Source: Mesorhizobium sp. (lineage in GTDB: Bacteria > Pseudomonadota > Alphaproteobacteria > Rhizobiales > Rhizobiaceae). Taken from it: a stretch of 64,000 nt of DNA. Location of the stretch: positions 62,001 through 126,000 of the forward strand of contig SAJS01000006.1 of assembly GCA_004017535.1 (NCBI GenBank), read 5' to 3'. A model generated the notes under the pieces. The model saw only the letters and a list, made by a program, of their open reading frames with translations, did not search any database and had not been told where the DNA came from. The position numbers were made by a program, and so were the translations under genes. Shown in pieces: positions 18,314 through 54,673 of this stretch (its first letter is position 1; each line of letters opens with the position of its first letter).

Positions 18314-18328
18314 CAAAATTTAATTCCG
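18314..18328. promoter_or_regulatory. IclR-type 15-bp motif, site 1
   Basis: CAAAATTTAATTCCG, a partial match to TGRAATTNARTTYCR with one good half-site. It is upstream of the monooxygenase that starts at 18240. The rest of 18241-18726 holds no supported gene. Confidence 0.45.
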
Positions 18329-18726
18329 ATTTCAGAACCTGATTGTCGCCCGCGGCGCTCGGCTCTGCCCTCGTAGGCAGAAGCTAGTCGAATTTGCTTC
18401 GTGCCCACCACATTCGTCGGGTGCCCTACGGCCAAACGCTTCTGTGGGAGTTGCGCAGGCGGATGGAATAACAGGTGGGCTCTGCGAGCGGCTGTCGACG
18501 CCGGCGCCGAATTCGGCATAAAGGCCGTTGGCGATCGCGCGTCGAAAGCCCTTCGGACAAAAGCCCGGACTTCCGCTTCATTGATACGTTGATCGGGCCC
18601 CGCACACCTGCCCATCTTGCGAATGTTTCTCTCAACAGATCATGGGTCCGCCGGTTAACGCCCGCCTTGCTCATGACACCTGAACCCCAGGAGCACAGTG
18701 CTCGGACCACCGCGGCAGGGGCGGCA

Positions 18727-19581
18727 TTAATAGATTAGCTCGCCCCGCTCTTCCGCCTGCTCTGCCGCCTGCGCTAGACCTTCCAATTTCAGACGTCTTT
18801 TGTGTTCGCGCCGCCGACCGATCTCGTATGTGACACCGCCCGCGACAGCTATCAGGATCATGATAACGGCTAGGGCGTTTATCTGGGGCGTCACCCCAAT
18901 TCGCACCTGAGACGCAATGTAAATCGTGACGGTCTCGGCATTCCCCCGGGCGAACAGTGGCACGTTAAATGCCTCCAAAGCCTGCAGGAACGCGATCATG
19001 GCGCCTACGGCAATCGCCGGACGAAGATGTGGGAGCATGACCATGGTCAAGACTTGCCAGTTGGTCGCCCCCAAATCGAGCGCAGCGTCTTCGAGCGCGC
19101 GGTCGAAGCTTTGCAAGCGCGCCAGCACTAGCAGCATGACAAATGCCGATATGATTGAGGACACTCCGAGCGTGGTCATGAAAATGCCAGCTGGCACGTT
19201 CACGCCTCGCCAGAAGATCAGTGTCGAGATGCCCACCACCGCTGCCGGCGTCAGGATAGGAGCGGTCATGAGCGCATACAGCAAGGCTCTGGACTTGCCC
19301 TTCGTGTTATTCAAAACGATCGCTGCGGCCGTGCCGATCGGGACGGAGAGCAAAGTCACTCCCACGGCGAGCATAAGTGTATTCCAAACGGCGACGAGGA
19401 GCTGGCGGTTCTCCGCCATTTGCGTAAACCAGTGAAGGGTCGATGCCTTCCAAGGCCACACAGACGGAAATCGCGTATCGTTGAACGCCGCCCCTCCTAC
19501 AATCAGCAGGGGAAGCAGTAGGAAGCCTATGAATAGGGCGACATACCCTACCATCAAATAGTGCGAGTAGGAGCGCTTCAT
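18727..19581 (-). CDS. ABC transporter permease, PotC-like (system A)
   Basis: 284 residues, about six hydrophobic helices. The EAA loop that docks on the ATPase reads EDAALDLGATNWQVLTMVMLP (about residues 180-200). A charged C-terminal tail (RRREHKRRLK, then EQAEERGELIY) is longer than usual. It is the last gene of a four-gene reverse-strand operon (binding protein, ATPase, permease, permease) of the spermidine/putrescine type, 8 bp after the other permease. Transported ligand probably an amine or a small charged compound; this is inferred from family only. Confidence 0.92.
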   Translation of the reverse strand: MKRSYSHYLMVGYVALFIGFLLLPLLIVGGAAFNDTRFPSVWPWKASTLHWFTQMAENRQLLVAVWNTLMLAVGVTLLSVPIGTAAAIVLNNTKGKSRALLYALMTAPILTPAAVVGISTLIFWRGVNVPAGIFMTTLGVSSIISAFVMLLVLARLQSFDRALEDAALDLGATNWQVLTMVMLPHLRPAIAVGAMIAFLQALEAFNVPLFARGNAETVTIYIASQVRIGVTPQINALAVIMILIAVAGGVTYEIGRRREHKRRLKLEGLAQAAEQAEERGELIY

Positions 19582-19589
19582 TCCAGAGC

Positions 19590-20501
19590 CTAACGGGTGA
19601 TGTCGGCGAGATTAACGCGGAAGAGTTTCATGACCAAGGACACAAACAAGAGACAGACAAGCAAAAGCAGGAATGCGTAAGCAGCCGCCGAATTCCAATC
19701 CTGCCCTTCGAACATTGAGCGGATAATTATCTCCGTAAACCACCGAGAATTCGGTGACCCAAGCAGCGTTGGTACTAGAACGGAGCCAACGGCAAACATG
19801 AAGACCATTGTAGCACCTGAACTTATCCCTGGTTTGGCGTGCGGCATGATGACATTGAGATGAGCTTGCCAGCTGCGCGCGCCAAGATCCTTTGCTGCCT
19901 CAATTTGATTATTATCCAGGGCAGTCAAGCTATTGTAGATAGGGAAAAACATGAAAAGAATATAAGTGTACACCATCCCTATGATTATGCCGTTGTAGCC
20001 GGAGAGCCAGCGCACTTTAGATAAGCCCACCGCGTCAAGCAGTGCGTTCAACGGGCCCTGGTAAGCCAGGATTATGAACCATGCAAAGGTCCTGAGCATT
20101 TCGCTGACAAAAAGCGGGATAGCCAGCATTAAGAAAAGCGTTGGAATCTGCGCCGGCGCCGCCTTCTTCGCCAAAAAATAGGCTGCCGGATACGCCAGTG
20201 CGAAACAGATAATAGTCACGCCGCAGCTGTAGAACACCGTGATAAGGAACACTTGAACAGCGATGGGAACCATAAGCCCTAGGAACTCACTGCTCGCACT
20301 CATATCAAACAATGACAGGTAGTTTGCCAACGTATATCGGTCGGAAGGCCCGCCGATCTCGCTGACAGGCAAGTAAAGCCGGAAGGATTTCTCAATCATT
20401 ACGGAGTAAGGCACCCATACCAAGGCAAGCAGCCAGAACGCCGTCAACGTAACCAGAATCGCGGACAGCCCCCAGCCGTAACGGCGAACGAAATCACTCA
20501 T
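19590..20501 (-). CDS. ABC transporter permease, PotB-like (system A)
   Basis: 303 residues from ATG 20501, which has CAGGAG about 8 nt upstream; the in-frame start at 20528 would overlap the ATPase stop. About six membrane helices, with EAA loop IEAAKDLGARSWQAHLNVIMP. It pairs with the PotC-like subunit to form the membrane channel of the importer. Confidence 0.92.
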   Translation of the reverse strand: MSDFVRRYGWGLSAILVTLTAFWLLALVWVPYSVMIEKSFRLYLPVSEIGGPSDRYTLANYLSLFDMSASSEFLGLMVPIAVQVFLITVFYSCGVTIICFALAYPAAYFLAKKAAPAQIPTLFLMLAIPLFVSEMLRTFAWFIILAYQGPLNALLDAVGLSKVRWLSGYNGIIIGMVYTYILFMFFPIYNSLTALDNNQIEAAKDLGARSWQAHLNVIMPHAKPGISSGATMVFMFAVGSVLVPTLLGSPNSRWFTEIIIRSMFEGQDWNSAAAYAFLLLLVCLLFVSLVMKLFRVNLADITR

Positions 20502-20524
20502 GGTCCGAACTCCTGTTGGCGAGC

Positions 20525-21613
20525 TCACTCGACCTTCAGAACCTTCGCGGCATCGGCCGCAAATGTGAATTTGATCTGCTCGCCAACCGACGGCAGCATC
20601 AGGCCTGGTCGGTTCGTGAACTGGGATGTCAGATGGGCGCCGCTTTCCGTTCGCCCGATGACACTGACCACATTGCCTTCGAATATCACGCTGTTCACGA
20701 CGACAGGCAGAGTGTTGACCTGCTCATCACCTATCTTGATCGTTTCTGGGCGGATGTACACTTTCGTTCGAGCTGCGTTTGTCAGATCCGGGCCTGCCAC
20801 GCAGGCAATCGCACCGTCCGCTGTCACGAAGCACGGCTGGCTTCTGTCGAGCTGTTGTATACGTCCCTCCAGGATGGAATTCTCGCCCACAAACGACGCG
20901 ACAAATCCGTTGACTGGATCGTTGTAAATTCGTTCGGGAGTGTCCACCTGCTGCAGGCGTCCCTTGGACATCACACCAACGCGATCCGACATTGCCAAGG
21001 CTTCATTCTGGTCGTGAGTGATGTAGATGAATGTTACCTTCGTGCGCTCCTGAATGGCCCGCAGTTCGCTACGCATATGTTGACGAAGCTTCAGGTCGAG
21101 TGCCGATAAAGGCTCGTCCAGCAACATCACCTTGGGCTCGACAGCCAAGGCGCGCGCAATCGCGATCCTTTGCTTCTGACCGCCGGACAATTGCGCTATC
21201 ATCTTGTGGGCTGCATCAGGAAGGTCGACTATCCGCAGCAAATCCTCCGCGCGACGTCGACGTTCCGCCTTATCGATCCCTCTCACTTTGAGACCGAATG
21301 AGATGTTCTCCCAAACATTCATCAGCGGAAACAGCGCGAGATTCTGGAAGATAAGAGCCGTTGGTCGCTTGTTCGGACCAATTCCTCTCATGGGACGTCC
21401 GCCGATACTAATGCTGCCCTCCGTCGGTTCGAGGAAGCCGGAAATCGCACGGAGAATTGTCGTCTTGCCGCATCCGGAGGGCCCGAGGAAGGAGAAGAAC
21501 TCTCCTGGGCGAATATCAACCGACACGTTATCCACTGCTCTGAATCGCCCAAAGTCCACGCTGACTCGGCTGATCTCGACCCCCTCACTCATATCTTCTT
21601 GTCCGAACTCCAT
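20525..21613 (-). CDS. ABC transporter ATP-binding protein, PotA-like (system A)
   Basis: 362 residues. Walker A GPSGCGKTT, Q-loop FQNLALFP, signature LSGGQKQRIAIARA, Walker B VMLLDEPLSALD and switch His in YITHDQNEA are all intact. A C-terminal TOBE domain (about 280-360) follows, as in PotA/FbpC. An in-frame ATG at 21592 is an alternative start. A strong terminator-like hairpin separates it from the binding-protein gene, so it probably is expressed at a lower level by readthrough. Confidence 0.93.
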   Translation of the reverse strand: MEFGQEDMSEGVEISRVSVDFGRFRAVDNVSVDIRPGEFFSFLGPSGCGKTTILRAISGFLEPTEGSISIGGRPMRGIGPNKRPTALIFQNLALFPLMNVWENISFGLKVRGIDKAERRRRAEDLLRIVDLPDAAHKMIAQLSGGQKQRIAIARALAVEPKVMLLDEPLSALDLKLRQHMRSELRAIQERTKVTFIYITHDQNEALAMSDRVGVMSKGRLQQVDTPERIYNDPVNGFVASFVGENSILEGRIQQLDRSQPCFVTADGAIACVAGPDLTNAARTKVYIRPETIKIGDEQVNTLPVVVNSVIFEGNVVSVIGRTESGAHLTSQFTNRPGLMLPSVGEQIKFTFAADAAKVLKVE

Positions 21614-21641
21614 GCCGCCATCGCGTCTGAATTAAGAAAAT

Positions 21642-21669
21642 TTGGGCACCCTTGGAGTTGAGTGCCCAA
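21642..21669 (-). terminator. Terminator-like hairpin between binding protein and ATPase (system A)
   Basis: TTGGGCAC and GTGCCCAA form a perfect 8-bp stem with a 12-nt loop, followed on the reverse strand by AAATTTTCTT. It lies just after the binding-protein stop and before the ATPase gene and looks like a partial intrinsic terminator. Confidence 0.65.
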
Positions 21670-21688
21670 TAGCTCATCATGCCGTCTT

Positions 21689-22819
21689 TCACGCGGAACG
21701 GAAGCGATCCGAGTATTCGCCGCGCAGTTTGACAAACCAAGGCTCCTGAGCCGGCCACCACCACATCTTGGCAACGGCCTCTGGAGGATAGGCCTTGACG
21801 CTGAAGTCCTTGAACGGACCCGTTAGCAGGTCGATCGATCCAGCGGCGCTAGAAAGTCCTTGGTTCGCAACGCCCCAGCGCACACCGTTTTTCGGCCGGG
21901 AAATCCACCTTAGATACTCGTAGGCCTGGTCGACATTCTTGGCGCCCTTCGTAAGGACGTAGCCTTGGTTCCATCCGAAAGCTCCCTCCTTCGGAGTGAC
22001 CCAGCGTACGTTGGTACCTTGGTCGGCAAGCGAACGCCCGATCGACTCCCAAACCAAACCCACCCGGCAGCCGTTGGTGGCGAAGGCGCCGATGCCCTCG
22101 TTGTCGTTCGTCCAGAACTGCGCGACGTTCTTTTTGTGCTTCACCGCTTCTGCGAGGATGACGTCGTACACAGCCCTCATCGACGCCTCGTCCTTGTAGG
22201 CGTCGAGATAGGGTTTGGGCAACTTTCCCTCAGCTTCCATGATCCGACCTAGCGCCGCAAGCCCGGAATAGGGCCGTAGCGTGACCTGGCCTTCGAACTT
22301 CGGGTCGAAAAGATCCGCAAGGCTTGCCGAGCCGAATTCATGGCCCTCGACGTCGCTCGCGTAAGCCATGCCCTCGCCGCCCCATAGCGCCGACATATAG
22401 TAGAGCTTGCCGCCCACATAGGCGCTATCGCCTTCGACAGTCCCGGGCATGCCTTTGGAAGTGTTGGTGAGTTCCAATTTGGCAGGATCGAGCGGCTGCA
22501 CGATCCCACTGGCGGGATAGACCGGCAGGTTGGTTATGGTAGCCTCGACCAAGTCCAGTTCGCCGGGGTTGGCCAGCTTCGCCTGCGCGAGGATGCTGTC
22601 GGAGTCAGGTTGGCCGATTTCATTCACCGTGATGCCGGTGTCTGCCTTGAACGCGTCGAAGACGTCCTTGTGCAAGGGAAAACCGGCATAGGTGAGAAGA
22701 TTGAGCTCACCTGAGGACGCCAGCGCTTTGGAAGAAATGATAGCGGGGGCGGCGAGAAACGCACCCGTCGCTGCCGCGCCTTTGAGTACGCTGCGTCTGT
22801 TTACGATTAGGTTCTTCAT
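21689..22819 (-). CDS. ABC transporter substrate-binding protein, polyamine type (system A)
   Basis: 376 residues from ATG 22819 with GGAG upstream; the open frame to 22942 has no export signal at its start. The N-terminus NRRSVLKGAAATGAFLAAP is Tat-like (twin Arg followed by a hydrophobic stretch). The mature part is a PotD/PotF-like type II binding fold (ELNLLTYAGFPLHKDVFDAF; WGGEGMAYASD; VGLVWESIGRSLADQG). It is the first gene of the system A operon. An IclR-type motif is about 280 nt upstream, shared with the divergent GMC gene. Confidence 0.9.
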   Translation of the reverse strand: MKNLIVNRRSVLKGAAATGAFLAAPAIISSKALASSGELNLLTYAGFPLHKDVFDAFKADTGITVNEIGQPDSDSILAQAKLANPGELDLVEATITNLPVYPASGIVQPLDPAKLELTNTSKGMPGTVEGDSAYVGGKLYYMSALWGGEGMAYASDVEGHEFGSASLADLFDPKFEGQVTLRPYSGLAALGRIMEAEGKLPKPYLDAYKDEASMRAVYDVILAEAVKHKKNVAQFWTNDNEGIGAFATNGCRVGLVWESIGRSLADQGTNVRWVTPKEGAFGWNQGYVLTKGAKNVDQAYEYLRWISRPKNGVRWGVANQGLSSAAGSIDLLTGPFKDFSVKAYPPEAVAKMWWWPAQEPWFVKLRGEYSDRFRSA

Positions 22820-23099
22820 TGTTGCTCCATCCTCTGTTGAGTTCATTCCGTTTGCTCGCTGATCGGCACTTTGCCCTCGCGCAGCTTTGGTGGACTGGTC
22901 GGACCGGGTTGGCGTTCTCGGCATGACTGGCGGTGGAACCACAACGATCGGCTCCTAGATTGAACCGGCCGTCATTGATCGCGCGCCGCGGCAGGATTGT
23001 CTGGAACTCGATCCCATTGTTGCGACCCCGCTGCGTTCTGTTTCGTTATTGTGCAGCACCTAATGCTTGCCACAAGCGCGAGATCGTGGCAATCATTTT

Positions 23100-23114
23100 C
23101 GGAATATAATTCTA
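23100..23114. promoter_or_regulatory. IclR-type 15-bp motif, site 2
   Basis: CGGAATATAATTCTA. It lies in the 517-bp divergent gap (22820-23336) between transporter system A and a GMC oxidoreductase and could serve both. No gene is supported in this gap. Confidence 0.55.
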
Positions 23115-23336: not shown

Positions 23337-24941
23337 ATAAACGAAACCTACGACATCATAGTCGCTGGCGCTGGCTCGGCCGGTTGCGTGCTTGCAAACT
23401 TGCTCTCCGAGAATCCCGGCACCAGAGTGCTGCTTCTTGAGGCCGGTGGGAGCGATTGGAATCCGCTGGTGTCGGTTCCCCTTGGCGCACGCAAGCTGCT
23501 CGACTGGGGTTGGTATCAATGGAACGACCAGTCAGAACCGGATCCAGGCTTGAATGGGCGTCGGCAACAGGTGCCGCACGGCAAGCTCATAGGTGGAACC
23601 TCTTCGATCAACTTCATGGCGCATGTGCGCGGGCACCCCCACGACTACGCCAACTGGGTCAGGTGCGGCGCAACGAGCTGGAGCTACGAGGCCGTGCTGC
23701 CATTTTTCCGTCGAAGCGAGCGCTGGCTACTCGGGGCGGATGCGTGGCGTGGGGCCGAAGGACACGTCAGCGTGGAACCGTCGGCATTGCGTGACCCCAT
23801 CGCACAAAGCTGGTTCGCGGCAATCGACGCCTCCGGCCAGGGCAGAACGACCGACTACAATGGAGAGAGCCCTGAGGGTTTCGGTCCAATGCAATATTCT
23901 GTGGATCACGGTCGCAGAAGTTCTGCTGCCTCGGCATACCTGAAACCGGCGCTATCCCGTCCAAACTTGCGGCTGATAAAACGGGCTACCGTCACTCGAG
24001 TGTTGTTCGACGGGCGGCGGGCTGTGGGCGTCGAGTACATGCGGGCCGGTCGGAATGTGCAAGCGTTATGTTCCGACCGCCTCGTTCTCTCGATGGGGGC
24101 GATCAATACCCCGCAAGTCCTTATGCTGTCCGGGGTCGGGCCCGCCAGTCATTTGAAGGAGGTTGGGATCGATCCGGTTCTCGATCTCCCGGTTGGCAAG
24201 AATCTGGAGGATCATCTCGGCTACTTCCTGGAATGGGAAAGGCGCGACCTCGATCCGTTTCACGCATCGCTTAGGCTCGATCGAATAGCCATCAATATGA
24301 TGCGGGCATACCTGTTTCGCACAGGGCCCGCAGCGCATCTCCCAGGGTCGATTGGCGGCTTCATTCGATCGTCCCCCGACTTTGTCGCGCCCGATCTTCA
24401 GTTTCTCATTCCATTCATTAGCCCTAGTGCGAATGTTTGGCTGCCGTTCCAAAATGTGCGGACCCAGGCTGAGTTTGCCGTCAAGGTCCAACTCACATCG
24501 CAACGGAGCAGGGGAGAGGTCAAACTCGCTTCTGCCGATTTCCGTACTCGGCCTCAGATCGTCTACAATTCGCTTTCGGATGATCACGATTTAAAGGTGC
24601 TGCGAGCGGGCTTCAGGATCGCCCAAGATCTTGGTAATTCCCCAGCGCTGGCAGCCTTTAGAAAAGCCCCGAGAAACCCTGACCGGGTGCTTGACCATGA
24701 CAAGGACATCGACAGCTTCATTCGATCCACGGCAATTCAGCAGTATCATCCAGCCAGCACGTGCGCGATGGGAGGTGACAGTCGAGCTGTCCTCACGAAC
24801 GAATTGAAGGTCCGCGGAACGGCCAACCTGTTCGTAGTTGATGCCTCTGCCATGCCCCGTCTCATTTCTGGCAATCCCAACATCGTGATCATTATGATGG
24901 CCGCGCGTGCTGTCGACCTTTGGAAACAGATGCCCACTTAG
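23337..24941 (+). CDS. GMC-family FAD oxidoreductase, copy 1 (non-standard start codon)
   Basis: About 534 residues, choline/alcohol dehydrogenase-like. The FAD motif GAGSAG, signature PHGKLIGGTSSINFMAHVRG, second signature GAINTPQVLMLSGVGPASHL, active-site His in QQYHPASTC and Asn in SGNPN are all present. The reading frame opens after a stop at 23298 with no ATG, GTG or TTG before the FAD motif. The first standard start (GTG 23388) would remove GAGSAG. The alignment to the paralogue at 33347-34942 (MAETFDTVIVGAG) puts the start at the ATA codon 23337, which has a perfect GGAGG 8 nt upstream. It therefore uses AUA, or the gene has an ATG-to-ATA change. It oxidises an alcohol to an aldehyde; the substrate is unknown. 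Confidence 0.88.
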   Translation: MNETYDIIVAGAGSAGCVLANLLSENPGTRVLLLEAGGSDWNPLVSVPLGARKLLDWGWYQWNDQSEPDPGLNGRRQQVPHGKLIGGTSSINFMAHVRGHPHDYANWVRCGATSWSYEAVLPFFRRSERWLLGADAWRGAEGHVSVEPSALRDPIAQSWFAAIDASGQGRTTDYNGESPEGFGPMQYSVDHGRRSSAASAYLKPALSRPNLRLIKRATVTRVLFDGRRAVGVEYMRAGRNVQALCSDRLVLSMGAINTPQVLMLSGVGPASHLKEVGIDPVLDLPVGKNLEDHLGYFLEWERRDLDPFHASLRLDRIAINMMRAYLFRTGPAAHLPGSIGGFIRSSPDFVAPDLQFLIPFISPSANVWLPFQNVRTQAEFAVKVQLTSQRSRGEVKLASADFRTRPQIVYNSLSDDHDLKVLRAGFRIAQDLGNSPALAAFRKAPRNPDRVLDHDKDIDSFIRSTAIQQYHPASTCAMGGDSRAVLTNELKVRGTANLFVVDASAMPRLISGNPNIVIIMMAARAVDLWKQMPT

Positions 24942-26584: not shown

Positions 26585-26614
26585 TCGCAAGGCTCCTCAC
26601 GTACGGACACGAAG

Positions 26615-26629
26615 TGGAATTTAGTTCCA
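26615..26629. promoter_or_regulatory. IclR-type 15-bp motif, site 3 (best palindrome)
   Basis: TGGAATTTAGTTCCA, a near-perfect inverted repeat (TGGAA-N5-TTCCA). It fits the TGGAAATNATTTCCA consensus I recall for E. coli IclR. It is 30 nt upstream of the amine-oxidase-like gene and also in front of the divergent DAO gene. Confidence 0.65.
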
Positions 26630-26793
26630 GAAATTCATAAAAGATGCAACTGTTTATGTGGCCCAACGCGTTTGAAATAGACCTAGCTGCGTCACAGTGA
26701 CGTTGCAGCGAAGGCATGGGCCAGGGAGAGCTTGGACGTGCTGCGCATGGCGGTTCGCACGCGAATTCCCGCAGCGTTCAATACCAAAACAAA

Positions 26794-26809
26794 GTTTCAT
26801 TTTTGAAAC
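26794..26809. promoter_or_regulatory. Second inverted repeat, GTTTCA-TTTT-TGAAAC
   Basis: Perfect 6-bp arms with a 4-bp spacer, 71 nt upstream of the DAO-family gene. It differs from the 15-bp island motif and could be another regulator's operator. Similar TGAAAC arms occur in KdgR-type IclR-family sites. Confidence 0.4.
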
Positions 26810-26880
26810 GCCTCGCTTGACGATCTTGTCGCCTTGGCATAATCCAACAGTGCGTCAACCACTCTGGACGATGAACCCCC

Positions 26881-30215: not shown

Positions 30216-30230
30216 TGAAATTAAATTTCG
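30216..30230. promoter_or_regulatory. IclR-type 15-bp motif, site 4
   Basis: TGAAATTAAATTTCG, upstream of the aldehyde dehydrogenase starting at 30060 and just downstream of the alpha/beta-hydrolase stop. Confidence 0.6.
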
Positions 30231-36327: not shown

Positions 36328-36342
36328 AGAAACTTAATTTCG
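36328..36342. promoter_or_regulatory. IclR-type 15-bp motif, site 5
   Basis: AGAAACTTAATTTCG, 36 nt upstream of the GTG of the amine-oxidase-like gene, heading a four-gene operon. Confidence 0.55.
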
Positions 36343-36630: not shown

Positions 36631-37452
36631 CTATTCAGGTGTGTTTCCGAGAGTCGGATCCTCTAAGCGCTCACGAAGGTGTCGCGCGGCCGCAACAAGT
36701 TCATGTCCGACGGTTGAGAGGCATGCGTCTCTTGAAAGGATGTCGGATATGCCTCCGCAGGTTAGTGCCACAAGAGGCGATCCGTCTGTAGGTCGGAATG
36801 GCACTCCGACTGCGTTGATATAGCTGTACCAGGTGCCGAAAGAGCAAACATAGCCTCGTTCTCGGTACATATTCATAGCTTCATCAACGGCTTGCCGTAT
36901 CGCACGGCGACTCTTTGGGTCACTCGCAATCAACTGCTTTATCAGATCACTGCGCAGTTCTGGCATCATCCCCACGACATAGGCGAGACCCATGGCTGTG
37001 CGCCAGATGGGCAACTGCGACCCAACATTCAGTTGTAACGTCACCGGTCCATAAGCCCGGCAGTTTGCAAGATAGATCATCTCCAGCCCATTCCGGGTCC
37101 CCAAGGCTGCAGCTACTCCGGTCTTATCTGCAAGGCGTCGCAGCAAAGGCTGCACGACGCGCACCACCGGTGTAGAGCTTAGGGCGGAATATCCGAGCGA
37201 AATGGTCGACGGACCGATGCTGTAGCGCCCCATCGCCTCGTCGTAGTTCAGATAACCCATGCTCACCAAGGCGTAAGTGAGGCGGGAGACCGTGGCTTTG
37301 GCAAGTCCAGTTCTGTCTATCAAGTCCTGGTTGCCCAACGTCGAATCGGTTGCCCTGAATGCCCGCAGGATTTCGAGTCCGCGGACCAGGGAACTTGCGG
37401 CCACACTGTCGTCCCCTGCGACTTCGTCGGGTGTCTTGGTTCGTTTTCTCAT
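36631..37452 (-). CDS. IclR-family transcriptional regulator, probable master regulator of the island
   Basis: 273 residues. N-terminal winged helix-turn-helix at about 19-80 (ASSLVRGLEILRAF, then RTGLAKATVSRLTYALVSMG); the C-terminal effector domain is about 100-260 (LANCRAYGPVTLQLNVGSQLPIWRTAMGLA). It is the only IclR-family gene in the window and lies mid-way in the region in which 12 copies of an IclR-like palindrome occur. Two copies flank it, one (37507-37521) 54 nt before its own start, suggesting autoregulation. Repressor or activator role cannot be told from sequence. The gene stands alone on its strand between the amine-oxidase operon and the acyl-CoA dehydrogenase. Confidence 0.92.
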   Translation of the reverse strand: MRKRTKTPDEVAGDDSVAASSLVRGLEILRAFRATDSTLGNQDLIDRTGLAKATVSRLTYALVSMGYLNYDEAMGRYSIGPSTISLGYSALSSTPVVRVVQPLLRRLADKTGVAAALGTRNGLEMIYLANCRAYGPVTLQLNVGSQLPIWRTAMGLAYVVGMMPELRSDLIKQLIASDPKSRRAIRQAVDEAMNMYRERGYVCSFGTWYSYINAVGVPFRPTDGSPLVALTCGGISDILSRDACLSTVGHELVAAARHLRERLEDPTLGNTPE

Positions 37453-37506: not shown

Positions 37507-37521
37507 TGAAATATAAATCCA
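37507..37521. promoter_or_regulatory. IclR-type 15-bp motif, site 6
   Basis: TGAAATATAAATCCA, 54 nt upstream of the IclR gene. 13 of 15 positions fit the derived consensus. Confidence 0.5.
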
Positions 37522-37652: not shown

Positions 37653-37667
37653 TGGAATTTAGTTTCG
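37653..37667. promoter_or_regulatory. IclR-type 15-bp motif, site 7
   Basis: TGGAATTTAGTTTCG, 84 nt upstream of the acyl-CoA dehydrogenase; only one base of the right half-site and the last base differ from site 3. Confidence 0.6.
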
Positions 37668-42312: not shown

Positions 42313-42322
42313 GTCGTTCGTG

Positions 42323-42346: not shown

Positions 42347-42367
42347 GATTGACAAGGGAGAACGAGA

Positions 42368-42961: not shown

Positions 42962-42976
42962 TGGAATTAAAGTTCG
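42962..42976. promoter_or_regulatory. IclR-type 15-bp motif, site 8
   Basis: TGGAATTAAAGTTCG, 100 nt upstream of the cupin gene that heads a forward operon of six genes. Nearly identical to site 11. Confidence 0.6.
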
Positions 42977-43649: not shown

Positions 43650-43674
43650 CACTCAAGATGATCGGAACTTACAA

Positions 43675-43950: not shown

Positions 43951-44087
43951 TTTCTTTGAGAACTGCCCCGCTTCGATCGGCTCGCGCCGGAGCCATCGTG
44001 CTGACGCGTGCTTCATCCTGCGGTTTTGAACCTCATTGCGCGATAACGGCTGCCGCTGGCGAAGCGCTGCTATAATGGACAGAAAGA

Positions 44088-44963: not shown

Positions 44964-44975
44964 TCGGGAGGTAAA

Positions 44976-45962: not shown

Positions 45963-45972
45963 AGAAACTGTC

Positions 45973-46725: not shown

Positions 46726-46815
46726 CCCTTTCTTTCGATGTTGCTCGAAGGCAGCGCAGTTGGCCAAGAGCCGCTACCCAGGCGCGAGCTGAAGCCGCCT
46801 AGATGGATGGATCCC

Positions 46816-47796
46816 ATGGGAAGCAAAAGCGGATCACTGGCTGGCGGGCGGGCTGCTCTCATTGTGGCTGGGCCGCTGCCTCAATGCGTGGAGGCCATCC
46901 TCGAACCGCAATTCGACCTTTTCGTCCTGCCTCGACCTGACGCCGGCTTAGTGACTCGCGAAATAGCTGGGGCGGCGCGAGGGGCCGCGGTGATGGGGGG
47001 CGCCGGAGCTCCGTTCATCGAGGCCCTGCCGCAGCTCGAAATCATTTCGAGCCTAGGTGTCGGCTACGACAAAGTCGATGTCGACGCGGCACTGGCGAAA
47101 AACATAGTCGTTACGCATACGCCGGACATCCTGAATGAGGAGGTCGCCGATGCTGCGATCGGCCTGCTCCTCAACACGCTGCGAGAGCTGCCGCGAGCGG
47201 AGGCGTTCCTGCGGGAAGGTCGGTGGCTGGAGGGTGCGTTTCCATTGACACGGGGAACATTACGCGGGCGCAAGGTCGGAATATACGGGCTCGGGCGCAT
47301 TGGCCAGGCAATTGCGCGGCGTCTCGACGCCTTCGGCGTCGCTGTATCCTACCACAATCGCAAGCCGGTGCCTGACGTCACCTGGCATTGGGAGCCGACG
47401 CTGCTCGGTCTGGCACGCAGCGTGGATACGCTTGTATGCGTGGTTCCTGGCGGACCAGGCACGGTACATGCCGTTAACGCGGAGATCCTCTCGGCGCTCG
47501 GCACGAACGGTGTGTTGATCAATATCGGGCGTGGCTCGACAGTCGATGAGGCCGCATTGGCGCACGCACTGCGCAGCGGCGTGATTCTGGCGGCCGGGCT
47601 CGATGTGTTCGAGCATGAGCCGCGCGTGCCGGCCGAATTGCTCGACCTGCCGAACGCTTGCCTGCTGCCTCACGTCGGATCGTCGACAATCCACACGCGA
47701 CACCTGATGGGCGAGCTAGTGGCGCGGAACTTGGTCAACTGGTTCACCGAGGCGAAGGCGGTCACGCCGATTCCGGAATGCGCCGGCCCTAGGTGA
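46816..47796 (+). CDS. D-isomer-specific 2-hydroxyacid dehydrogenase (glyoxylate/hydroxypyruvate reductase-like)
   Basis: 326 residues from ATG 46816; ATGs at 46807 and 46738 are in frame and the true start is uncertain. NAD motif GIYGLGRIGQAIARR, catalytic Arg in NIGRGSTVDE, Glu in DVFEHEPRVP and His in LLPHVGSST are intact. It interconverts a 2-keto acid and a D-2-hydroxy acid. Last gene of the operon starting at 43077. Confidence 0.9.
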   Translation: MGSKSGSLAGGRAALIVAGPLPQCVEAILEPQFDLFVLPRPDAGLVTREIAGAARGAAVMGGAGAPFIEALPQLEIISSLGVGYDKVDVDAALAKNIVVTHTPDILNEEVADAAIGLLLNTLRELPRAEAFLREGRWLEGAFPLTRGTLRGRKVGIYGLGRIGQAIARRLDAFGVAVSYHNRKPVPDVTWHWEPTLLGLARSVDTLVCVVPGGPGTVHAVNAEILSALGTNGVLINIGRGSTVDEAALAHALRSGVILAAGLDVFEHEPRVPAELLDLPNACLLPHVGSSTIHTRHLMGELVARNLVNWFTEAKAVTPIPECAGPR

Positions 47797-48015: not shown

Positions 48016-48024
48016 GTCAATAAT

Positions 48025-48039
48025 CGAAATAAAATTCCA
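48025..48039. promoter_or_regulatory. IclR-type 15-bp motif, site 9
   Basis: CGAAATAAAATTCCA, 58 nt upstream of the D-serine dehydratase gene. Confidence 0.55.
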
Positions 48040-48097: not shown

Positions 48098-49402
48098 ATG
48101 CCCAATCTCCTATCCAACCTCCCGGTTGACCAGGCGCTGCGCAGCAGGGAGCCTTGCCTGTGGACTAACTCGTGCGTGGCAGGGCCGACCCATCCTGAGG
48201 CGGGTCTTCTCCGCCAAGCCGACGACGCAGCCGACCGTTTGAGGCGCGCCGATCGGCTGTTATCGGCTAGGTTCGGTATTCCGCAGAGCGACGAGCCGGT
48301 GATATCATCCGCGCTGCTTGACGCCAGCCATTATGGGCAGTCGGTGGGCATTCCCGGTTCTTGGATGGTAAAAGCGGATCACGCCTTACCGGTGGCCGGT
48401 TCGGTCAAGGCGCGCGGTGGCTTCCACGAGGTGATCGCGCTGGCAGAGCGCCTTGCGATCGCGAACAATCTGACCAGAGAGGGCGCCGATCTCATCGCGC
48501 TCGATACACCATCGGCAAGATCGCTTTTCTCGTCATACACGATCGCCGTGGGCAGCACGGGCAACCTTGGCCTGAGTATCGGCATGATGGCGTCCGCCCT
48601 GGGATTCCGCGCAGTCGTGCATATGTCGAGCGATGCGAAGGAGTGGAAGAAGGATAGATTGCGCGACCGCGGCGTCGAGGTCGTTGAGCACCTAGGCGAC
48701 TACGCGGAAGCGGTGGCGAAGGGTCGAGAGCTCGCTGAGCGGGATCCACGGACTCACTTCGTGGATGACGAACGCTCGATCAACCTTTTTGTCGGGTATG
48801 CGGCCGCTGCGCGCGAGCTCGCGAAACAGCTCGAAACAGCTGCCATTGCCGTCAATTCGGACCATCCGCTGTTCGTCTATATACCTTGCGGAGTGGGAGG
48901 AGCACCGGGGGGAATTACCTTTGGCCTGAAGCGGATCTTTGGCCGGAACGTGCACTGCTTTTTTGCGGAACCGGTGGCATCGCCCTGCATGTTGGTCCAG
49001 CTGCTTTCAAGCTCCGACGACCCGGTTTCCGTGTATGACATTGGCTTGGACAATCAAACCGAGTTGGACGGGCTGGCGGTCGGCCAGGCTTCCATGTTGG
49101 TCGCGCCGCTGATGAAGACTCGGTTGAGCGGCATCTTTACCGTATCCGACGATGAGGCGTTCCGCCTTCTTGGGCGCGCCCATGACATCATGGGGCTTGA
49201 CGTCGAACCATCGGCAGCGTCGGCCTTCGCCGGGCCGGTGAGGTTGACGCAAAGCGACGTGGGCCGCGCTTATCTGTCCCGGCATGGAATAGAGCACAAA
49301 CTCGCTGCATCGACGCATGTCATCTGGACGACCGGCGGTGCGTTGGTTCCTGGGCCAGAGCGCGAGCGCTTTCTCGCCCGGGCACAGGCGCTTGCTGGAT
49401 GA
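48098..49402 (+). CDS. dsdA: D-serine dehydratase
   Basis: 434 residues, fold-type II PLP enzyme that deaminates D-serine to pyruvate and ammonia. The PLP lysine is Lys104 in VAGSVKARGGFHEV; the phosphate-binding loop is VGSTGNLGLSIG; a further glycine cluster is PCGVGGAPGGI, all as in DsdA. GGAGG lies 9 nt before the ATG. Its inclusion in the island suggests an amino-hydroxy-acid or D-amino acid intermediate; related beta-hydroxy-amino acids such as D-threonine are also possible substrates. It stands alone, with an operator just upstream. Confidence 0.88.
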   Translation: MPNLLSNLPVDQALRSREPCLWTNSCVAGPTHPEAGLLRQADDAADRLRRADRLLSARFGIPQSDEPVISSALLDASHYGQSVGIPGSWMVKADHALPVAGSVKARGGFHEVIALAERLAIANNLTREGADLIALDTPSARSLFSSYTIAVGSTGNLGLSIGMMASALGFRAVVHMSSDAKEWKKDRLRDRGVEVVEHLGDYAEAVAKGRELAERDPRTHFVDDERSINLFVGYAAAARELAKQLETAAIAVNSDHPLFVYIPCGVGGAPGGITFGLKRIFGRNVHCFFAEPVASPCMLVQLLSSSDDPVSVYDIGLDNQTELDGLAVGQASMLVAPLMKTRLSGIFTVSDDEAFRLLGRAHDIMGLDVEPSAASAFAGPVRLTQSDVGRAYLSRHGIEHKLAASTHVIWTTGGALVPGPERERFLARAQALAG

Positions 49403-49476: not shown

Positions 49477-50709
49477 TTAGTCGTTGAAACCCGAAATGAC
49501 ACCTGCGGTTTCAAGAGAAATGATCGCTTTGTCGGAATAGCCCAGCACGTCCTTCAGAATGTGGTGGGTATGTTGACCCAGCAGTGGCGGCGCCAAATAG
49601 TCTGCTTCCTTCTGGGCTGCCAATCCGTGGGCTGGGCGGATCAGCTTGACTGGGCCGAGATGCGGATTTTGCAGCGTTTGCACCATCGATCTCTCTTGGA
49701 CACCCCTGCTGTTCAGCGCTTCTTCAACCGTCTTGACAATCCCGGCAGGCACTTCTGCCGCACTGCAGGCGTCCATCCAATGTTGCCGGCTTCCCGAGCG
49801 GAAAGCTTCCTCGAGGATCGGGACAAGGACTTCCCGATTCCTAGCTCTGGCATTCGCAGTTTGGAACCTCGGATCATCTGACAGGTCGGGCTTGCTGATC
49901 ACTGACTCGCAGAGGGCCTTAAACTGGCGGTCATTTCCAACCGCAAGAGCAAACGAACCATCCGAGCAGTCAAATATCTGGTAAGGTACGACCGTTGGAT
50001 GGGCGTTCCCATAGCGCCCTACCTGAGTATCGCTGTTTAGAAAGCCGGTTCCGACATTGATGAGGAGATTGAGGGCGCAATCCATCAGCGAAACATCGAT
50101 GTGCTGCCCCTCTCCGGTGCGCTCCCGATGAAAAAGTGCTCCGAGAATGGATTGTGTCGCCACCATCCCGCACGCAATATCCGTGATGGCAATGCCAAAG
50201 CGGAGAGGCTGGCCGCCCTTTTCGCCAGTGATGGCCATGAGACCGCTTTCGGCCTGCGCGATGAAATCATAGCCAGGGCGCCGCGCCTCGGAAGTGTCGC
50301 GCCCGTAACCGGAAATCGAGCAATAAACCACATCCGGCCTTATCGCTCGCAACTGCTCATAGCCGACCCCGAGGCGCTCGGCCGTGCCGACTCGGAAATT
50401 CTCGACGACCACATCGCACTGCTCTGCTAGGCTCCGCACGATCGCCAGTCCCTCGGGTGATTTTATGTCCAGGGCCAAGGATCTTTTCCCTCGGTTGGCA
50501 CACAGATAGTATGTACTGACACCCTTGTAGCTGGGCACAGACCAAGCGCGCGTGTCGTCTCCTCCATCGACGTTTTCGACCTTCCAGACCTCGGCGCCCA
50601 AATCGCTCAGGCTCATAGTTGCCCAGGGACCCGCCAGCACTCGGGAAAGATCGAGCACCTTTATGCCTTCTAATGGAAGACGACCTTTCGGCTTGTCTTG
50701 TGTAGTCAC
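49477..50709 (-). CDS. CaiB/BaiF-type (family III) CoA-transferase
   Basis: 410 residues; GTG start with GGAGGA 6 nt upstream. Typical blocks: [48 protein letters not shown] and catalytic Asp148 in [13 protein letters not shown]. It transfers CoA between acids (for example from succinyl-CoA) and could activate the pathway acid for the acyl-CoA dehydrogenase and FadB-like steps. An IclR-type motif starts 40 nt upstream. Confidence 0.92.
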
Positions 50710-50749: not shown

Positions 50750-50764
50750 TGAAATTAAATTCCG
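50750..50764. promoter_or_regulatory. IclR-type 15-bp motif, site 10
   Basis: TGAAATTAAATTCCG, full match to the derived consensus, 40 nt upstream of the CoA-transferase GTG. The following 330 bp (to 51095) hold no supported gene. Confidence 0.62.
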
Positions 50765-51095: not shown

Positions 51096-51860
51096 TCAGC
51101 ACCCAATATCCGTTTCTTGCACTGGGATCACGTCCGGCAGGAAAGAGCGCAAGTACAATACCGCCGCCCGAGCTGACTCCTCTGCGTAGTGGGTCGTGAT
51201 CTTACCGTGCATAGCGTACGAAAGGGATTGGATGCCATCCACTAGTGCGATGGCGGTTGCGACCTTGTCAGCCAGATCATCGACTTCTGGCATCCGGAAA
51301 AAGTGATGAAGGGCCCTAACACGAGCGTTTGCCACGCTGAATATTCCGGCGACATTGTCTCGACGCAGCTCAGAGAAGTAGGGGCCGAGCAAAAGCCTCA
51401 TTACACCAGGCTTTGCATTGCAATACTCTGCAGAAGCCATGACTCGCTCAGAAATATATGATTGCCAGCTGTCCGGTTGACGATTTAGAGCGGCTTCCGA
51501 AAGTCGTTCGAAATCCTGCAAATATTTACGAGCCAGCTGGAAAAAGGCTGCCTCCCGATTCGGAAAGAAGTGGTAGACAGAGCTGATAGGGACACGCGCC
51601 CGCTCGGCTATGTGTTGCAGGCTGATTTCGTGCAGTTCTCGTTCGGATACAAGCTCGTCGGTTGCAGCCATTAAGAGCTGAAGTCGCGCTTTCCCGCGCT
51701 CGCGTCGGGCTTTTGGCCTATCGGGGATTTCCTTGTCCAAGGTGTTCGCGCCGAGCTCATTCGCCGGTGAGGCTGATTTGCGAGGGAACAGGCGAAACCC
51801 GCCTGCATGGCTTCTCCATATAATCGAATTAAGTCCGAGAATGTCAACCGCCTCAGCCAA
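51096..51860 (-). CDS. TetR-family transcriptional regulator
   Basis: Up to 254 residues. The helix-turn-helix is ISLQHIAERARVPISSVYHF (about 79-98), typical of TetR, followed by a helical ligand domain. The start is uncertain: TTG 51860 gives about 50 residues before the usual TetR N-terminus, and a TTG at 51740 would give a normal length; neither has a strong ribosome site. The gene is divergent from the monooxygenase operon at 52138. A separate palindrome, TCGAATAAATTCGA, lies upstream and may be its operator, so the monooxygenase may respond to both regulators. Confidence 0.85.
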   Translation of the reverse strand: MAEAVDILGLNSIIWRSHAGGFRLFPRKSASPANELGANTLDKEIPDRPKARRERGKARLQLLMAATDELVSERELHEISLQHIAERARVPISSVYHFFPNREAAFFQLARKYLQDFERLSEAALNRQPDSWQSYISERVMASAEYCNAKPGVMRLLLGPYFSELRRDNVAGIFSVANARVRALHHFFRMPEVDDLADKVATAIALVDGIQSLSYAMHGKITTHYAEESARAAVLYLRSFLPDVIPVQETDIGC

Positions 51861-51897: not shown

Positions 51898-51911
51898 TCG
51901 AATAAATTCGA
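51898..51911. promoter_or_regulatory. Candidate TetR operator
   Basis: TCGAAT-AA-ATTCGA is a perfect inverted repeat, 37 nt before the TetR reading frame. Further TCGAATT copies are at 51824 and 51934. Position suits autoregulation and control of the divergent operon. Confidence 0.5.
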
Positions 51912-52066: not shown

Positions 52067-52081
52067 TGGAATTAAAGTTCA
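52067..52081. promoter_or_regulatory. IclR-type 15-bp motif, site 11
   Basis: TGGAATTAAAGTTCA, 56 nt upstream of the second monooxygenase. Confidence 0.6.
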
Positions 52082-52137: not shown

Positions 52138-53451
52138 ATGACGCGTCAGATGCATCTTGTTGGATACTGCTGCATCACTCCGACCTGGCACCACAATGGC
52201 GCTTGGCGGCATCCTGAGAGTGATGCGGTCCGTCCGCTCGATCCTGAGCGCTATGAGAATATGGCCCGGATCCTGGAGCGGGGGAAATTCGATGGGATGT
52301 TTATCGTCGACCTCATGATGCTGCACGATACCTACGGCGGCACCTTCGAACCAAATCTTCGACAGCCGGGGCAGACTTGGATGCTCGAACCGTTGCAGGT
52401 CTTGGCTGGGGTTGCGCGCGTTACTTCGCGCCTGGGTCTGGCAGCGACAATGTCGACATCTCTCTATCCGCCCTTCCACATAGCTCGCGCCTTCGCGACG
52501 CTGGACCATCTGAGTGGTGGCCGCGCTGGATGGAATTGTGTGACTTCAACCAACGACCGAGAGATTCAGAACTTCGGCGGCGACAGGCTAATGGAGAAGG
52601 GGCTGCGATACGACTACGCCGACGAGGTTGTCGAAGCCTGCCACGCGCTCTGGAATACGTGGGAGGATGGCGCGTTGGTCATCGATCAAAAGAACGGCAT
52701 CTTCGCCGACCCGTCGAAAGTTCACTACGCCAATTATCAGGGCAAGTATGTCAAAACGCGCGGACCTCTAACAACGCCTCGCTCACCACAGGGGTCACCC
52801 GTGATTATGCAAGCTGGGGCTTCAGATCGCGGTCGCGAGTTTGCGGCTCGATGGGCGGAGGTCATCTTCACGTTGCATTCCGACACGGCGCACATGAAGA
52901 AATTCTACGATGACGTGAAAAGTAGGGTCCAAAACGGAGGTCGCGACCCAAATCACTGTGCGATCCTTCCGTCGGTCGATGTCGTTGTCGGCGAGACGGA
53001 TTCGATCGCGCAGGAGAAGGCCGACTACATCAACTCCCTGGTCAGCGCCGAGCTCGGTGTAGCAGAAGTCTCGAACGCGATAGGCGTCGATCTGTCGGCC
53101 TATCCACTCGACAAGCCGTTGGAAGATATGGAGATCACGCAAGGGGCCCGCGGAATGATGGACATCATCCTGCAAGGTTCCGAGGGCCGGACCCTTCGCG
53201 ACGTGGGCTACATCTGGGGTGTCAGGCAAATGGCGCCACAGCTCATTGGTTCCCCCACCACTGTAGCCGATTCCCTGTGTGAAATGTTCGAAGCTCAGGC
53301 CTGTGACGGCTTCATTATCTGCCCCTCGCTGACACCCACTTCCTATAGCCAATTCGTCGATATGGTCGTGCCTGAGCTTCAGAGGCGCGGTGTCTACCGG
53401 AAAGAATACCAGGGACGAACCTTTCGCGAACATCTGCGCCAAGCGCTGTGA
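52138..53451 (+). CDS. LLM-class flavin-dependent monooxygenase (NtaA/SnaA/DszA family), copy 2
   Basis: 437 residues; GGGAGA 6 nt before the ATG. It is collinear with the enzyme at 16933-18240, with the same blocks RYENMARILERGKFDGMF, RLGLAATMSTSLYPPFHIA, DHLSGGRAGWNCVTS and SPVIMQAGASDRGREFA. The flavin reductase follows within 11 bp, making this a two-component system that uses FMNH2 and O2. The adjacent RutE-like gene points to nitrogen-compound breakdown. Confidence 0.93.
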   Translation: MTRQMHLVGYCCITPTWHHNGAWRHPESDAVRPLDPERYENMARILERGKFDGMFIVDLMMLHDTYGGTFEPNLRQPGQTWMLEPLQVLAGVARVTSRLGLAATMSTSLYPPFHIARAFATLDHLSGGRAGWNCVTSTNDREIQNFGGDRLMEKGLRYDYADEVVEACHALWNTWEDGALVIDQKNGIFADPSKVHYANYQGKYVKTRGPLTTPRSPQGSPVIMQAGASDRGREFAARWAEVIFTLHSDTAHMKKFYDDVKSRVQNGGRDPNHCAILPSVDVVVGETDSIAQEKADYINSLVSAELGVAEVSNAIGVDLSAYPLDKPLEDMEITQGARGMMDIILQGSEGRTLRDVGYIWGVRQMAPQLIGSPTTVADSLCEMFEAQACDGFIICPSLTPTSYSQFVDMVVPELQRRGVYRKEYQGRTFREHLRQAL

Positions 53452-53462
53452 GGACCACGACC

Positions 53463-53999
53463 ATGCAACACGCTCACGCCGTCAATTTCCAGGAAAGTCT
53501 CTCGATGGAATGGGTTTCGATTTCTCAAATCGATGGCAGCAGCTTGCGATCGGTTTTTGCGTGTTTCCCCTCAGGTGTGGTTGCGCTATGCGCCCTGATC
53601 GATGGGGTGCCAACTGGAATGGCAATCAGCTCATTCACGTCAGTGTCGCTTGAGCCGGCGCTGGTCTCTATCTGCATCCAGAAAAGCTCCTCAACTTGGC
53701 AAAAGCTGGAGCGCTGTGATTGGACGGGGTTATCGATACTGGGGGCTTCGCAAGCCGAAACGTGTCGTCAGCTTTCTCAAAAGACGGGTGATCGATTCGC
53801 TAATGTCGAATGGAGCAGTTCTCCCCGCGGCGCCGTTTTCATAAACGGCGCGATCGCTTGCCTGGAATGTCGCTTCTACAAAACTGTCGACGCCGGCGAT
53901 CACATCTTGGCCCTTCTGGAATTATCAGCCCATTCCGTGCCGCGGCCTGCTCAGCCGCTGGTCTTTCATGATCGACGCTTTCGCGAATTAGCCGTCTGA
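53463..53999 (+). CDS. Flavin reductase-like protein (HpaC/RutF/NtaB type)
   Basis: 178 residues from ATG 53463 (GAGGA 8 nt upstream); a GTG at 53448 overlapping the previous stop is possible. FMN-binding split-barrel: FACFPSGVVALCALIDGVPTGMAISSF, SLEPALVSICIQKSSSTW, and DHILALLELSA near the end. It supplies reduced flavin to the monooxygenase just upstream and perhaps to the copy at 16933. Confidence 0.88.
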   Translation: MQHAHAVNFQESLSMEWVSISQIDGSSLRSVFACFPSGVVALCALIDGVPTGMAISSFTSVSLEPALVSICIQKSSSTWQKLERCDWTGLSILGASQAETCRQLSQKTGDRFANVEWSSSPRGAVFINGAIACLECRFYKTVDAGDHILALLELSAHSVPRPAQPLVFHDRRFRELAV

Positions 54000-54014
54000 A
54001 CGCGCAGCACAATC

Positions 54015-54647
54015 ATGGGAGGTGCTTTGAGGCCCGAAGTGACTGAACTCGAGACACATCCGGCTGAGCTGCCGGAATCGGCATTGGATCGGCTTTTCCG
54101 AGAGGCGCGAACCCACAATGGTTGGCTCGACGGGCAGGTGACGGACGCGACGCTGAGACGGCTCTACGATTTGGTCAAAATGGGACCGACATCCGGCAAT
54201 TGCTGTCCCGGTCGTTTTGTTTTTGTCCGCACGGCCAAGGGAAAGGAGCGGCTGCGGCCGGCGCTGTCTTCAGGCAATATGGAAAAGACCATGTCTGCCC
54301 CGGTCACCGTGATTGTGGCGCACGACATGTCATTCTACGACAAACTGCCCGAGCTCTTCCCGCATAGGGACGCCAGACCATGGTTCACTTCAAGCCCGGC
54401 CCTGGCGGAAGAGACTGCGTTCCGAAATGGCACCTTGCAAGGAGCCTACCTTATTTTGGCAGCCCGTGCGCTCGGGCTCGATACGGGACCAATGTCAGGC
54501 TTCAAAAACGACGTGATAGACGAAGCGTTTTTTAAGGGAACGACCTGGCGATCAAATTTTCTCGTGAATCTCGGCCATGGCGACCCAGAGAGACTGTTCG
54601 GACGGCTACCCCGTCTGACAATGGATGACGCCTGCAGGTTCGAGTGA
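54015..54647 (+). CDS. rutE: Nitroreductase-family protein, RutE-like (malonic semialdehyde reductase type)
   Basis: 210 residues. RutE family: [89 protein letters not shown] all follow the RutE pattern closely. In pyrimidine use, RutE reduces malonic semialdehyde to 3-hydroxypropionate with NADPH. Here it is in an operon with a flavin monooxygenase and flavin reductase but without RutB or RutC, so the small aldehyde may arise from a different compound. Confidence 0.88.
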
Positions 54648-54658
54648 GGCGGCAAAAC

Positions 54659-54673
54659 CAAAATTAAATTTCA
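54659..54673. promoter_or_regulatory. IclR-type 15-bp motif, site 12
   Basis: CAAAATTAAATTTCA, 122 nt upstream of the second transporter operon. 13 of 15 positions fit. Confidence 0.5.

What the first reader, a model, noticed from the sequence alone, without database searches (positions are those of the whole stretch)
18314..54673. Twelve copies of an IclR-like 15-bp operator define one island-wide regulon
The motif TGRAATTNARTTYCR (both strands equivalent) was found at 18314, 23100, 26615, 30216, 36328, 37507, 37653, 42962, 48025, 50750, 52067 and 54659. All copies lie in gaps upstream of transcription units and I saw none inside genes. They precede both NtaA-like monooxygenases, both polyamine-type ABC transporters, both GMC/amine-oxidase modules, an ALDH, acyl-CoA dehydrogenase, cupin operon, dsdA, CoA-transferase and the IclR gene itself. 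No copy was noticed in the sugar operon or tra region. The shape matches TGGAAATNATTTCCA, which I recall as the E. coli IclR consensus, and the only IclR gene is central. This ties about 25 genes, spread over 36 kb on both strands, into one predicted pathway.
Basis: partly seen in the sequence, partly recalled or inferred. Interest (0 to 1): 0.88.

Follow-up and report, generated by a model that had tools for sequence, protein, structure and literature searches.

The report
One IclR switch across catabolic island
Twelve copies of one short DNA address, all between genes, mark a 36 kb bacterial gene island as probably controlled by a single IclR-type regulator encoded in its middle; the same regulator and address recur in related bacteria, partly with different breakdown genes attached.

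Summary
Confirmed and strengthened. All 12 sites are present (4 exact, 4 with one, 4 with two mismatches) and none overlaps a chosen gene. A matrix learned de novo from iclR promoters of 11 loci in other genomes gives exactly these 12 as the window's top 12 positions. Over the 6.86 Mb genome a pattern built to cover the sites hits 13 places in the island and 12 elsewhere; reversed control 10. In 400 kb of the same genome no position passes score 18, which 14 island positions pass.

Attribution to the island's IclR protein is well supported, not proven: the site lies 46-104 bp before the iclR match in 12 of 14 loci with an orthologue, while TetR relatives occur in 2 of 9 other genomes. In six relatives a TTGAC -35-like box starts 14 bp past the operator centre, each time on the side facing away from iclR; activation is plausible, repression nearly as likely. 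A CoA-transferase gene accompanies iclR in 14 of 14 loci, acyl-CoA dehydrogenase in 11; upper modules vary. Substrate unknown. New member of a known kind: an IclR-family local regulon with a group 2-like motif.

The parts
36631..37452 (-). IclR-family regulator gene (HTH_IclR + IclR_C), the proposed binder of all sites
   Evidence: Pfam; nearest named NCBIfam family PcaR/PcaU/PobR, 114.7 bits, below its cut-off 284.75
37507..37521 (.). operator before iclR itself (autoregulation); counterpart in G127
37653..37667 (.). operator before acyl-CoA dehydrogenase / TPP enzyme / IlvD-type dehydratase / glyoxalase-like genes (37752-42907 +)
   Evidence: sites before acyl-CoA dehydrogenase in relatives
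18314..18328 (.). operator before NtaA/DmoA-family monooxygenase 1 (16933-18294 -)
23100..23114 (.). operator between ABC transporter 1 (18727-22942 -) and GMC oxidoreductase 1 (23388-24941 +)
   Evidence: weaker counterpart before transporter 1 in G127
26615..26629 (.). operator before FAD amine oxidase-family gene 1 (25280-26590 -), divergent from the DAO gene
26785..26799 (.). weaker 13th site, before DAO-type oxidoreductase (26881-28140 +)
   Evidence: rank 18 in the list
30216..30230 (.). operator before aldehyde dehydrogenase (28624-30108 -)
36328..36342 (.). operator before amine oxidase 2 - GMC 2 - hydratase/3-hydroxyacyl-CoA dehydrogenase - alpha/beta hydrolase (30293-36324 -)
   Evidence: counterpart in G127
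42962..42976 (.). operator before cupin - hydrolase - D-erythronate dehydrogenase-like - SDR - 2-hydroxyacid dehydrogenase genes (43077-47796 +)
   Evidence: counterpart in G127
48025..48039 (.). operator before D-serine ammonia-lyase family gene (48098-49402 +)
50750..50764 (.). operator before class III CoA-transferase (49477-50709 -)
   Evidence: counterpart in G127
52067..52081 (.). operator before monooxygenase 2 - flavin reductase - malonic semialdehyde reductase-like gene (52138-54647 +); the TetR gene lies on its other side
   Evidence: sites before the relatives in G127 and G073
54659..54673 (.). operator before ABC transporter 2 (54796-58796 +), just upstream of TTGACA-N16-TATGAT
51096..51860 (-). 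TetR-family regulator, considered and judged unlikely to be the general binder
   Evidence: relatives in 2 of 9 other genomes

Best explanation
The IclR-family protein encoded at 36631-37452 binds, presumably as a dimer per site, the 15-bp palindrome TGRAATTNAATTYCA at 12 (perhaps 13) places and so co-regulates about 32 genes in about 14 transcription units, its own gene included. At several catabolic promoters the operator sits just upstream of a -35-like box (centre about -50), so I favour effector-dependent activation by contact with RNA polymerase (about 0.55 for the sign); at its own gene the site lies between weak -35-like and -10-like hexamers, which would suit autorepression. Shown by computation: the sites, their island specificity, their recurrence with iclR, and the operator to -35 spacing in relatives. 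Inferred: binding, oligomeric state, sign of regulation, operon limits, and an effector from the CoA-ester or dicarboxylate end of the pathway.
For: De novo symmetric EM on 200 bp before iclR in 11 loci of other genomes finds TGAAATTATATTCCA and ranks the 12 window sites 1-12. With 8 non-redundant promoters it recovers 12 of 12 at widths 13 and 15, 11 at 17 and 19, 10 at 21; eight sets of shuffled promoters gave 0,5,0,0,1,0,0,0. The site lies directly before iclR in 12 of 14 loci with 50-81% identical orthologues. Six operators are 76/90 identical between window and G127 while aligned flanks (317/540, 59%) are near the 55% of unrelated sequence (the G127 sites had been found with the window matrix, which raises their identity). 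Genome-wide specificity. Six relatives keep TTGAC exactly 14 bp past the operator centre (6 of 48 orientations; about 0.07 expected per offset). Relatives of monooxygenase 2 (E<=1e-150) occur in 4 of 297 genomes of the family, the window's included, all with an iclR match on the same contig.
Against: No binding or expression data. The recognition helix does not separate site-bearing orthologues from more distant homologues: G137 and G256 carry the same helix residues but show no site in the 3.7 kb examined. G073 and G089 have no site directly before iclR. G080 has one site above score 12 in 60 kb although relatives of the monooxygenases and transporter lie nearby. Acyl-CoA dehydrogenase relatives occur in 4 of 297 genomes without an iclR match at E<=1e-50. 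The six TTGAC boxes at +14 all belong to one promoter type, the one facing away from iclR, so they are not independent, and TTGAC with the GTCAA downstream is also an inverted repeat; in the window only 4 of 26 orientations have TTG[AC]C at +13 to +17, 0.41 expected.
Confidence: 0.87

Rival explanations
1. Same regulator and sites, but the protein is a classical repressor: it occludes promoters until an inducer releases it, as E. coli IclR does at aceBAK (recalled).
For: Operators end about 6 bp before the -35-like box or overlap promoter-like hexamers in several units, so a footprint longer than 15 bp could block polymerase; E. coli IclR and KdgR, with similar A/T-rich motifs, are repressors (recalled).
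Against: An operator at a fixed distance upstream of the -35 box is the usual place of an activator; PcaU and PobR, of the nearest named subfamily, are activators (recalled).
Confidence: 0.42
2. The TetR-family protein at 51096-51860 reads the 12 sites.
For: It lies in the island and a site (52067) lies between it and monooxygenase 2; TetR operators are also palindromes. TetR relatives also lie in the loci of G073, G080 and plasmid locus L059.
Against: The motif is present before iclR in genomes without a TetR relative; at E<=1e-15 relatives occur in 2 of 9 other genomes searched. The gene has a different perfect palindrome, TCGAATAAATTCGA, at 51898-51911, about 38 bp before its longest ORF, though one such copy is within chance.
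Confidence: 0.04
3. The repeats are not operators but A/T-rich promoter elements (UP elements) that look alike.
For: All lie in A/T-rich upstream regions.
Against: The sites keep dyad symmetry and GAA/TTC ends, no position of 400 kb of the same genome scores above 18, and they stay alike between window and G127 where flanks do not.
Confidence: 0.03
4. A different IclR-family protein encoded elsewhere in the genome binds the sites in trans, alone or in competition.
For: Other IclR-like candidates exist in the genome (first look: 10 candidates for G000, not examined).
Against: The motif accompanies this orthologue in 12 of 14 loci, directly before its own gene.
Confidence: 0.06

Closest known systems
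IclR-family regulons with group 2 motif TGRAACAN1-2TGTTYCA (Suvorova and Gelfand 2021, PMC8222616)
   Same: A/T-rich palindrome with TGRAA...TTYCA ends and short central spacing, local catabolic regulon, site before the regulator gene
   Different: inner half-site is TT rather than CA; whether this orthologous group is among their 181 could not be checked because the supplements were not readable here
E. coli IclR (operator TGGAAATNATTTCCA)
   Same: 15-bp odd palindrome with the outer bases TGGAA/TTCCA
   Different: protein far below the IclR equivalog cut-off (51.7 against 380 bits), inner bases differ, target genes unrelated, 12 or more operators instead of few (last point recalled)
PcaR/PcaU/PobR subfamily (beta-ketoadipate regulators)
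   Same: best NCBIfam match of the protein (114.7 bits); operators upstream of the promoter (recalled); CoA-ester chemistry nearby
   Different: below cut-off 284.75; operator lacks the GTNCG-N5-6-CGNAC pattern; no consistent third box seen by eye at the 12 sites
iclR-linked plasmid clusters of Shinella sp. HZN7 and WSC3-e and Agrobacterium sp. T29
   Same: iclR orthologue (62-63%), operator before iclR and before acyl-CoA dehydrogenase; CoA-transferase, hydratase/dehydrogenase and aldehyde dehydrogenase in the locus
   Different: dipeptide-type ABC transporter, keto-acid dehydrogenase, aminotransferases and C4-acid-sugar kinase instead of monooxygenases, polyamine-type transporters and oxidases

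Membership tests
IclR-family transcription factor | N-terminal HTH_IclR and C-terminal IclR_C domains | tested here: met
   Pfam 59.0 and 63.8 bits, both above gathering scores 22 and 24
E. coli-type IclR (glyoxylate bypass) | NCBIfam equivalog score above cut-off | tested here: not met
   51.7 bits against 380
PcaR/PcaU/PobR subfamily | TIGR02431 score above 284.75 | tested here: not met
   114.7 bits
PcaR/PcaU/PobR subfamily | GTNCG-N5-6-CGNAC operator | tested here: not met
   sites read TGRAATTNAATTYCA
IclR group 2 motif (PMC8222616) | palindrome TGRAACAN1-2TGTTYCA | tested here: inconclusive
   outer TGRAA/TTYCA and spacing agree; inner CA/TG replaced by TT/AA
local regulon of one regulator | motif recurs in other genomes before the regulator gene and orthologous target genes | tested here: met
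   exceptions G073, G089 (no site before iclR) and G080 (one site)
local regulon of one regulator | regulator binds the sites and changes expression | not testable with these tools
   needs gel shift or ChIP and a deletion strain

The most novel reading that the evidence does not exclude
The operator, with its set distance to the -35 box, is a portable address: a conserved core (iclR, CoA-transferase, mostly acyl-CoA dehydrogenase, often hydratase/dehydrogenase or aldehyde dehydrogenase) recruits exchangeable upper pathways and transporters that acquire the same operator, so that one regulator, sensing a common downstream intermediate, governs different substrates in different bacteria. In the window this has grown to 12-13 operators and about 32 genes for an unknown, probably nitrogen-containing substrate attacked by two FMN-dependent monooxygenases.
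Probability: 0.35. Interest if true: 0.6.

Novelty: new member of a known kind. Interest (0 to 1): 0.45.

Why it matters
It turns some 32 separately transcribed, vaguely annotated genes into one testable unit with a named regulator and operator, and gives a cross-genome matrix that can find further members. It also offers a case in which regulator, operator and part of the lower pathway stay while upper pathways change, which bears on how catabolic regulons are assembled.

Tried and rejected
Substrate: family matches suggest oxidation of a nitrogen-containing compound, acid activation by CoA transfer and beta-oxidation, with a trio recalling RutA/RutF/RutE (monooxygenase, flavin reductase, malonic semialdehyde reductase-like), but no substrate could be named; lactams, polyamine-like compounds or unusual amino acids stayed guesses. 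Three-box or tandem operators: flanks printed were looked at by eye; no consistent third box at the 12 sites; 26785 is followed by a GTTTC...GAAAC pair. Recognition helix as discriminator: not sharp. A first matrix from relatives was partly circular because its training sites were picked with the window matrix; it placed all 12 sites within the top 19 positions, with 54664, 26785 and 51897 and some register shifts of true sites among those above the weakest site; one search replaced it. Non-symmetric EM runs (five widths) found the same sequence in shifted register and my centre-based score read 0 of 12 each time; I do not count these for or against. My earlier start for substrate-binding protein 2 (54703/54706) would lie inside the -10-like hexamer; one search moved it to 54796. 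Close DNA relatives in plasmids: none of 26 records with a match covers 80% of 30000-54000 (best 6%). Literature: among titles and abstract beginnings I saw no paper on this regulon; searches returned none. The supplements of PMC8222616 were not readable, so an earlier prediction of this group cannot be excluded.
Full report
Observation. The pattern search finds all 12 stated sites: 4 exact, 4 with one and 4 with two mismatches on the better strand; 25 strand-matches in the window against 3.35 +/- 2.17 in shuffled sequence. In leave-one-out matrices each site is outranked by at most 13 of about 64,000 positions. Under my gene choice 12.5% of the island (38,937 bp) is intergenic, and 0 of 13 sites overlap a gene. 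The second substrate-binding protein needs care: its longest ORF starts at 54625, before site 54659, but ATG 54796 precedes a twin-arginine-type signal sequence and homologues in G127 and G073 match only from residues 48 and 67 of the long ORF, so the site is upstream. Nothing above score 11 lies outside 18308-54664 in the window.

Independent test. No window DNA went in; symmetry and width were my choice, prompted by the finding. It returned TGAAATTATATTCCA, and its 12 best positions in the window are exactly the 12 listed sites. For G073, one of the 11, it picked a poor sequence. With 8 non-redundant promoters the number of the 12 recovered in the top 12 was 12, 12, 11, 11, 10 at widths 13, 15, 17, 19, 21; eight sets of shuffled promoters gave 0, 5, 0, 0, 1, 0, 0, 0; non-symmetric runs found the same sequence out of register and scored 0 by my centre-based count at all five widths.

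Genome-wide. The core GRAAYTWARTTYC occurs exactly 5 times in 6.86 Mb, all 5 in the island; with up to one mismatch there are 28 places, 10 in the island and 18 outside, against 15 for the reversed control. A degenerate pattern made to cover all 12 sites gives 25 places: 13 in the island and 12 elsewhere, while the reversed control gives 10 strand-hits, so the outside number is about chance. In 400 kb sampled from three contigs, 100 kb of it from the same contig, 0 positions exceed score 18 and 1 exceeds 16; the island has 14 and 14.

Who reads it. The protein at 36631-37452 is an IclR-family regulator. In 14 loci with an orthologue at 50-81% identity (8 genomes, G386, 5 plasmid loci; one further plasmid hit, H5, was not fetched) the site lies directly before iclR in 12, at 46-104 bp from the start of the protein match. 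The exceptions are G073, where iclR follows transporter 2 genes that carry a site, and G089, a 5.3 kb fragment with a site elsewhere. Of 8 homologues at 38-43% examined, 1 (L017) has a site; four plasmid homologues at 42-46% (H8-H11) were not fetched. TetR relatives at E<=1e-15 occur in 2 of 9 other genomes; plasmid locus L059 also holds one at 36% identity. The recognition helix does not discriminate sharply.

Conservation. G127 is probably the same contig as L005, Corticibacterium sp. UT-5YL-CI-8 (same length, 32,350, and same 81% match). Between window and G127 six operators before orthologous genes are 76/90 identical while flanks align at 317/540, near the 55% of unrelated segments; the G127 sites were found with the window matrix, which favours likeness. 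Two weaker symmetric sites before both G127 transporters (18081 and 24711) appear at a lower threshold. In G073 sites precede the TPP enzyme, monooxygenase 2 and transporter 2. Relatives of monooxygenase 2 at E<=1e-150 occur in 4 of 297 family genomes, the window's own included, all four with an iclR match on the same contig. Acyl-CoA dehydrogenase relatives at that level occur in 11 of 297, 4 of them (G064, G070, G097, G171) without an iclR match at E<=1e-50. Against the simple picture, G080 has one site above score 12 in 60 kb although relatives of the monooxygenases, a transporter and TetR genes lie nearby.

Changing cargo. By tblastn in the 14 loci a CoA-transferase relative (62-76%) is present in 14, acyl-CoA dehydrogenase (67-89%) in 11, hydratase/dehydrogenase (57-74%) in 7 and aldehyde dehydrogenase (63-71%) in 7; the loci differ in length, from 3.7 to 60 kb. 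In the three plasmid loci with annotation (Shinella HZN7 and WSC3-e, Agrobacterium T29) the rest is a dipeptide-type transporter, keto-acid dehydrogenase parts, aminotransferases and a C4-acid-sugar kinase; keto-acid dehydrogenase genes also adjoin sites in G178, G106 and G271. The Sinorhizobium RAC02 and Rhizobium SSA_523 loci carry no annotation. The window, G127, G073 and G080 instead carry relatives of the FMN-dependent monooxygenases and polyamine-type transporters.

How it may work. In relatives TTGAC starts exactly 14 bp after the operator centre in 6 of 48 orientations, about 0.07 expected per offset. The six come from six different loci and all lie in the promoter facing away from iclR, followed by TTGTCAATAT or similar where a -10 box would be. 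So this is one promoter type kept in six genomes, not six independent cases, and the same letters also form a TTGAC/GTCAA inverted repeat. In the window TTG[AC]C falls at +13 to +17 in 4 of 26 orientations, 0.41 expected; transporter 2 has TTGACA-N16-TATGAT with the operator centre near -48. I therefore favour activation next to RNA polymerase, with autorepression at iclR, but repression is nearly as likely (0.42). These promoters are predictions.

Known context. PMC8222616 (outline with abstract, passages and the Results section read) lists E. coli IclR as TGGAAATNATTTCCA and describes group 2 motifs TGRAACAN1-2TGTTYCA, site centres mostly at -20 to -80, and regulogs of 1 to 55 regulated COGs. 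The present motif resembles group 2 with a different inner half-site, and about 32 genes lies within that range. PMC13273656 was seen in passages only. I found no paper on this regulon in the listings; that library lacks most subscription journals.

Noticed in passing
16933-18294 and 52138-53451: The two NtaA/DmoA-family monooxygenases are 74% identical; GMC and amine-oxidase genes also come in pairs, so the island seems to hold duplicated modules. G080 also has two such monooxygenases.
   Followed up: partly
52138-54647: Monooxygenase, flavin reductase and malonic semialdehyde reductase-like genes recall the rutA/rutF/rutE part of the pyrimidine pathway, a hint to the chemistry.
   Followed up: partly
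51898-51911: Perfect palindrome TCGAATAAATTCGA just before the TetR gene, a possible operator of its own; a single copy is within chance.
   Followed up: partly
59955-63002: Ti-type TraA relaxase, 85% identical to one on a Mesorhizobium sp. WSM1497 plasmid: the island borders a conjugation region.
   Followed up: partly
26785-26815: The weak 13th site is followed by a GTTTC...GAAAC inverted pair, so it may be a composite or another regulator's site.
   Followed up: no
L058, L059 and L062, some 20-35 bp after the operator before acyl-CoA dehydrogenase: A shared GCAC...GTGC element follows the operator in these promoters, function unknown.
   Followed up: no
G188, G178, G106, G080, G271 and L059, promoter facing away from iclR: TTGAC and GTCAA in these promoters form an inverted repeat besides fitting -35 and -10 positions; a second binding site is possible.
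   Followed up: no
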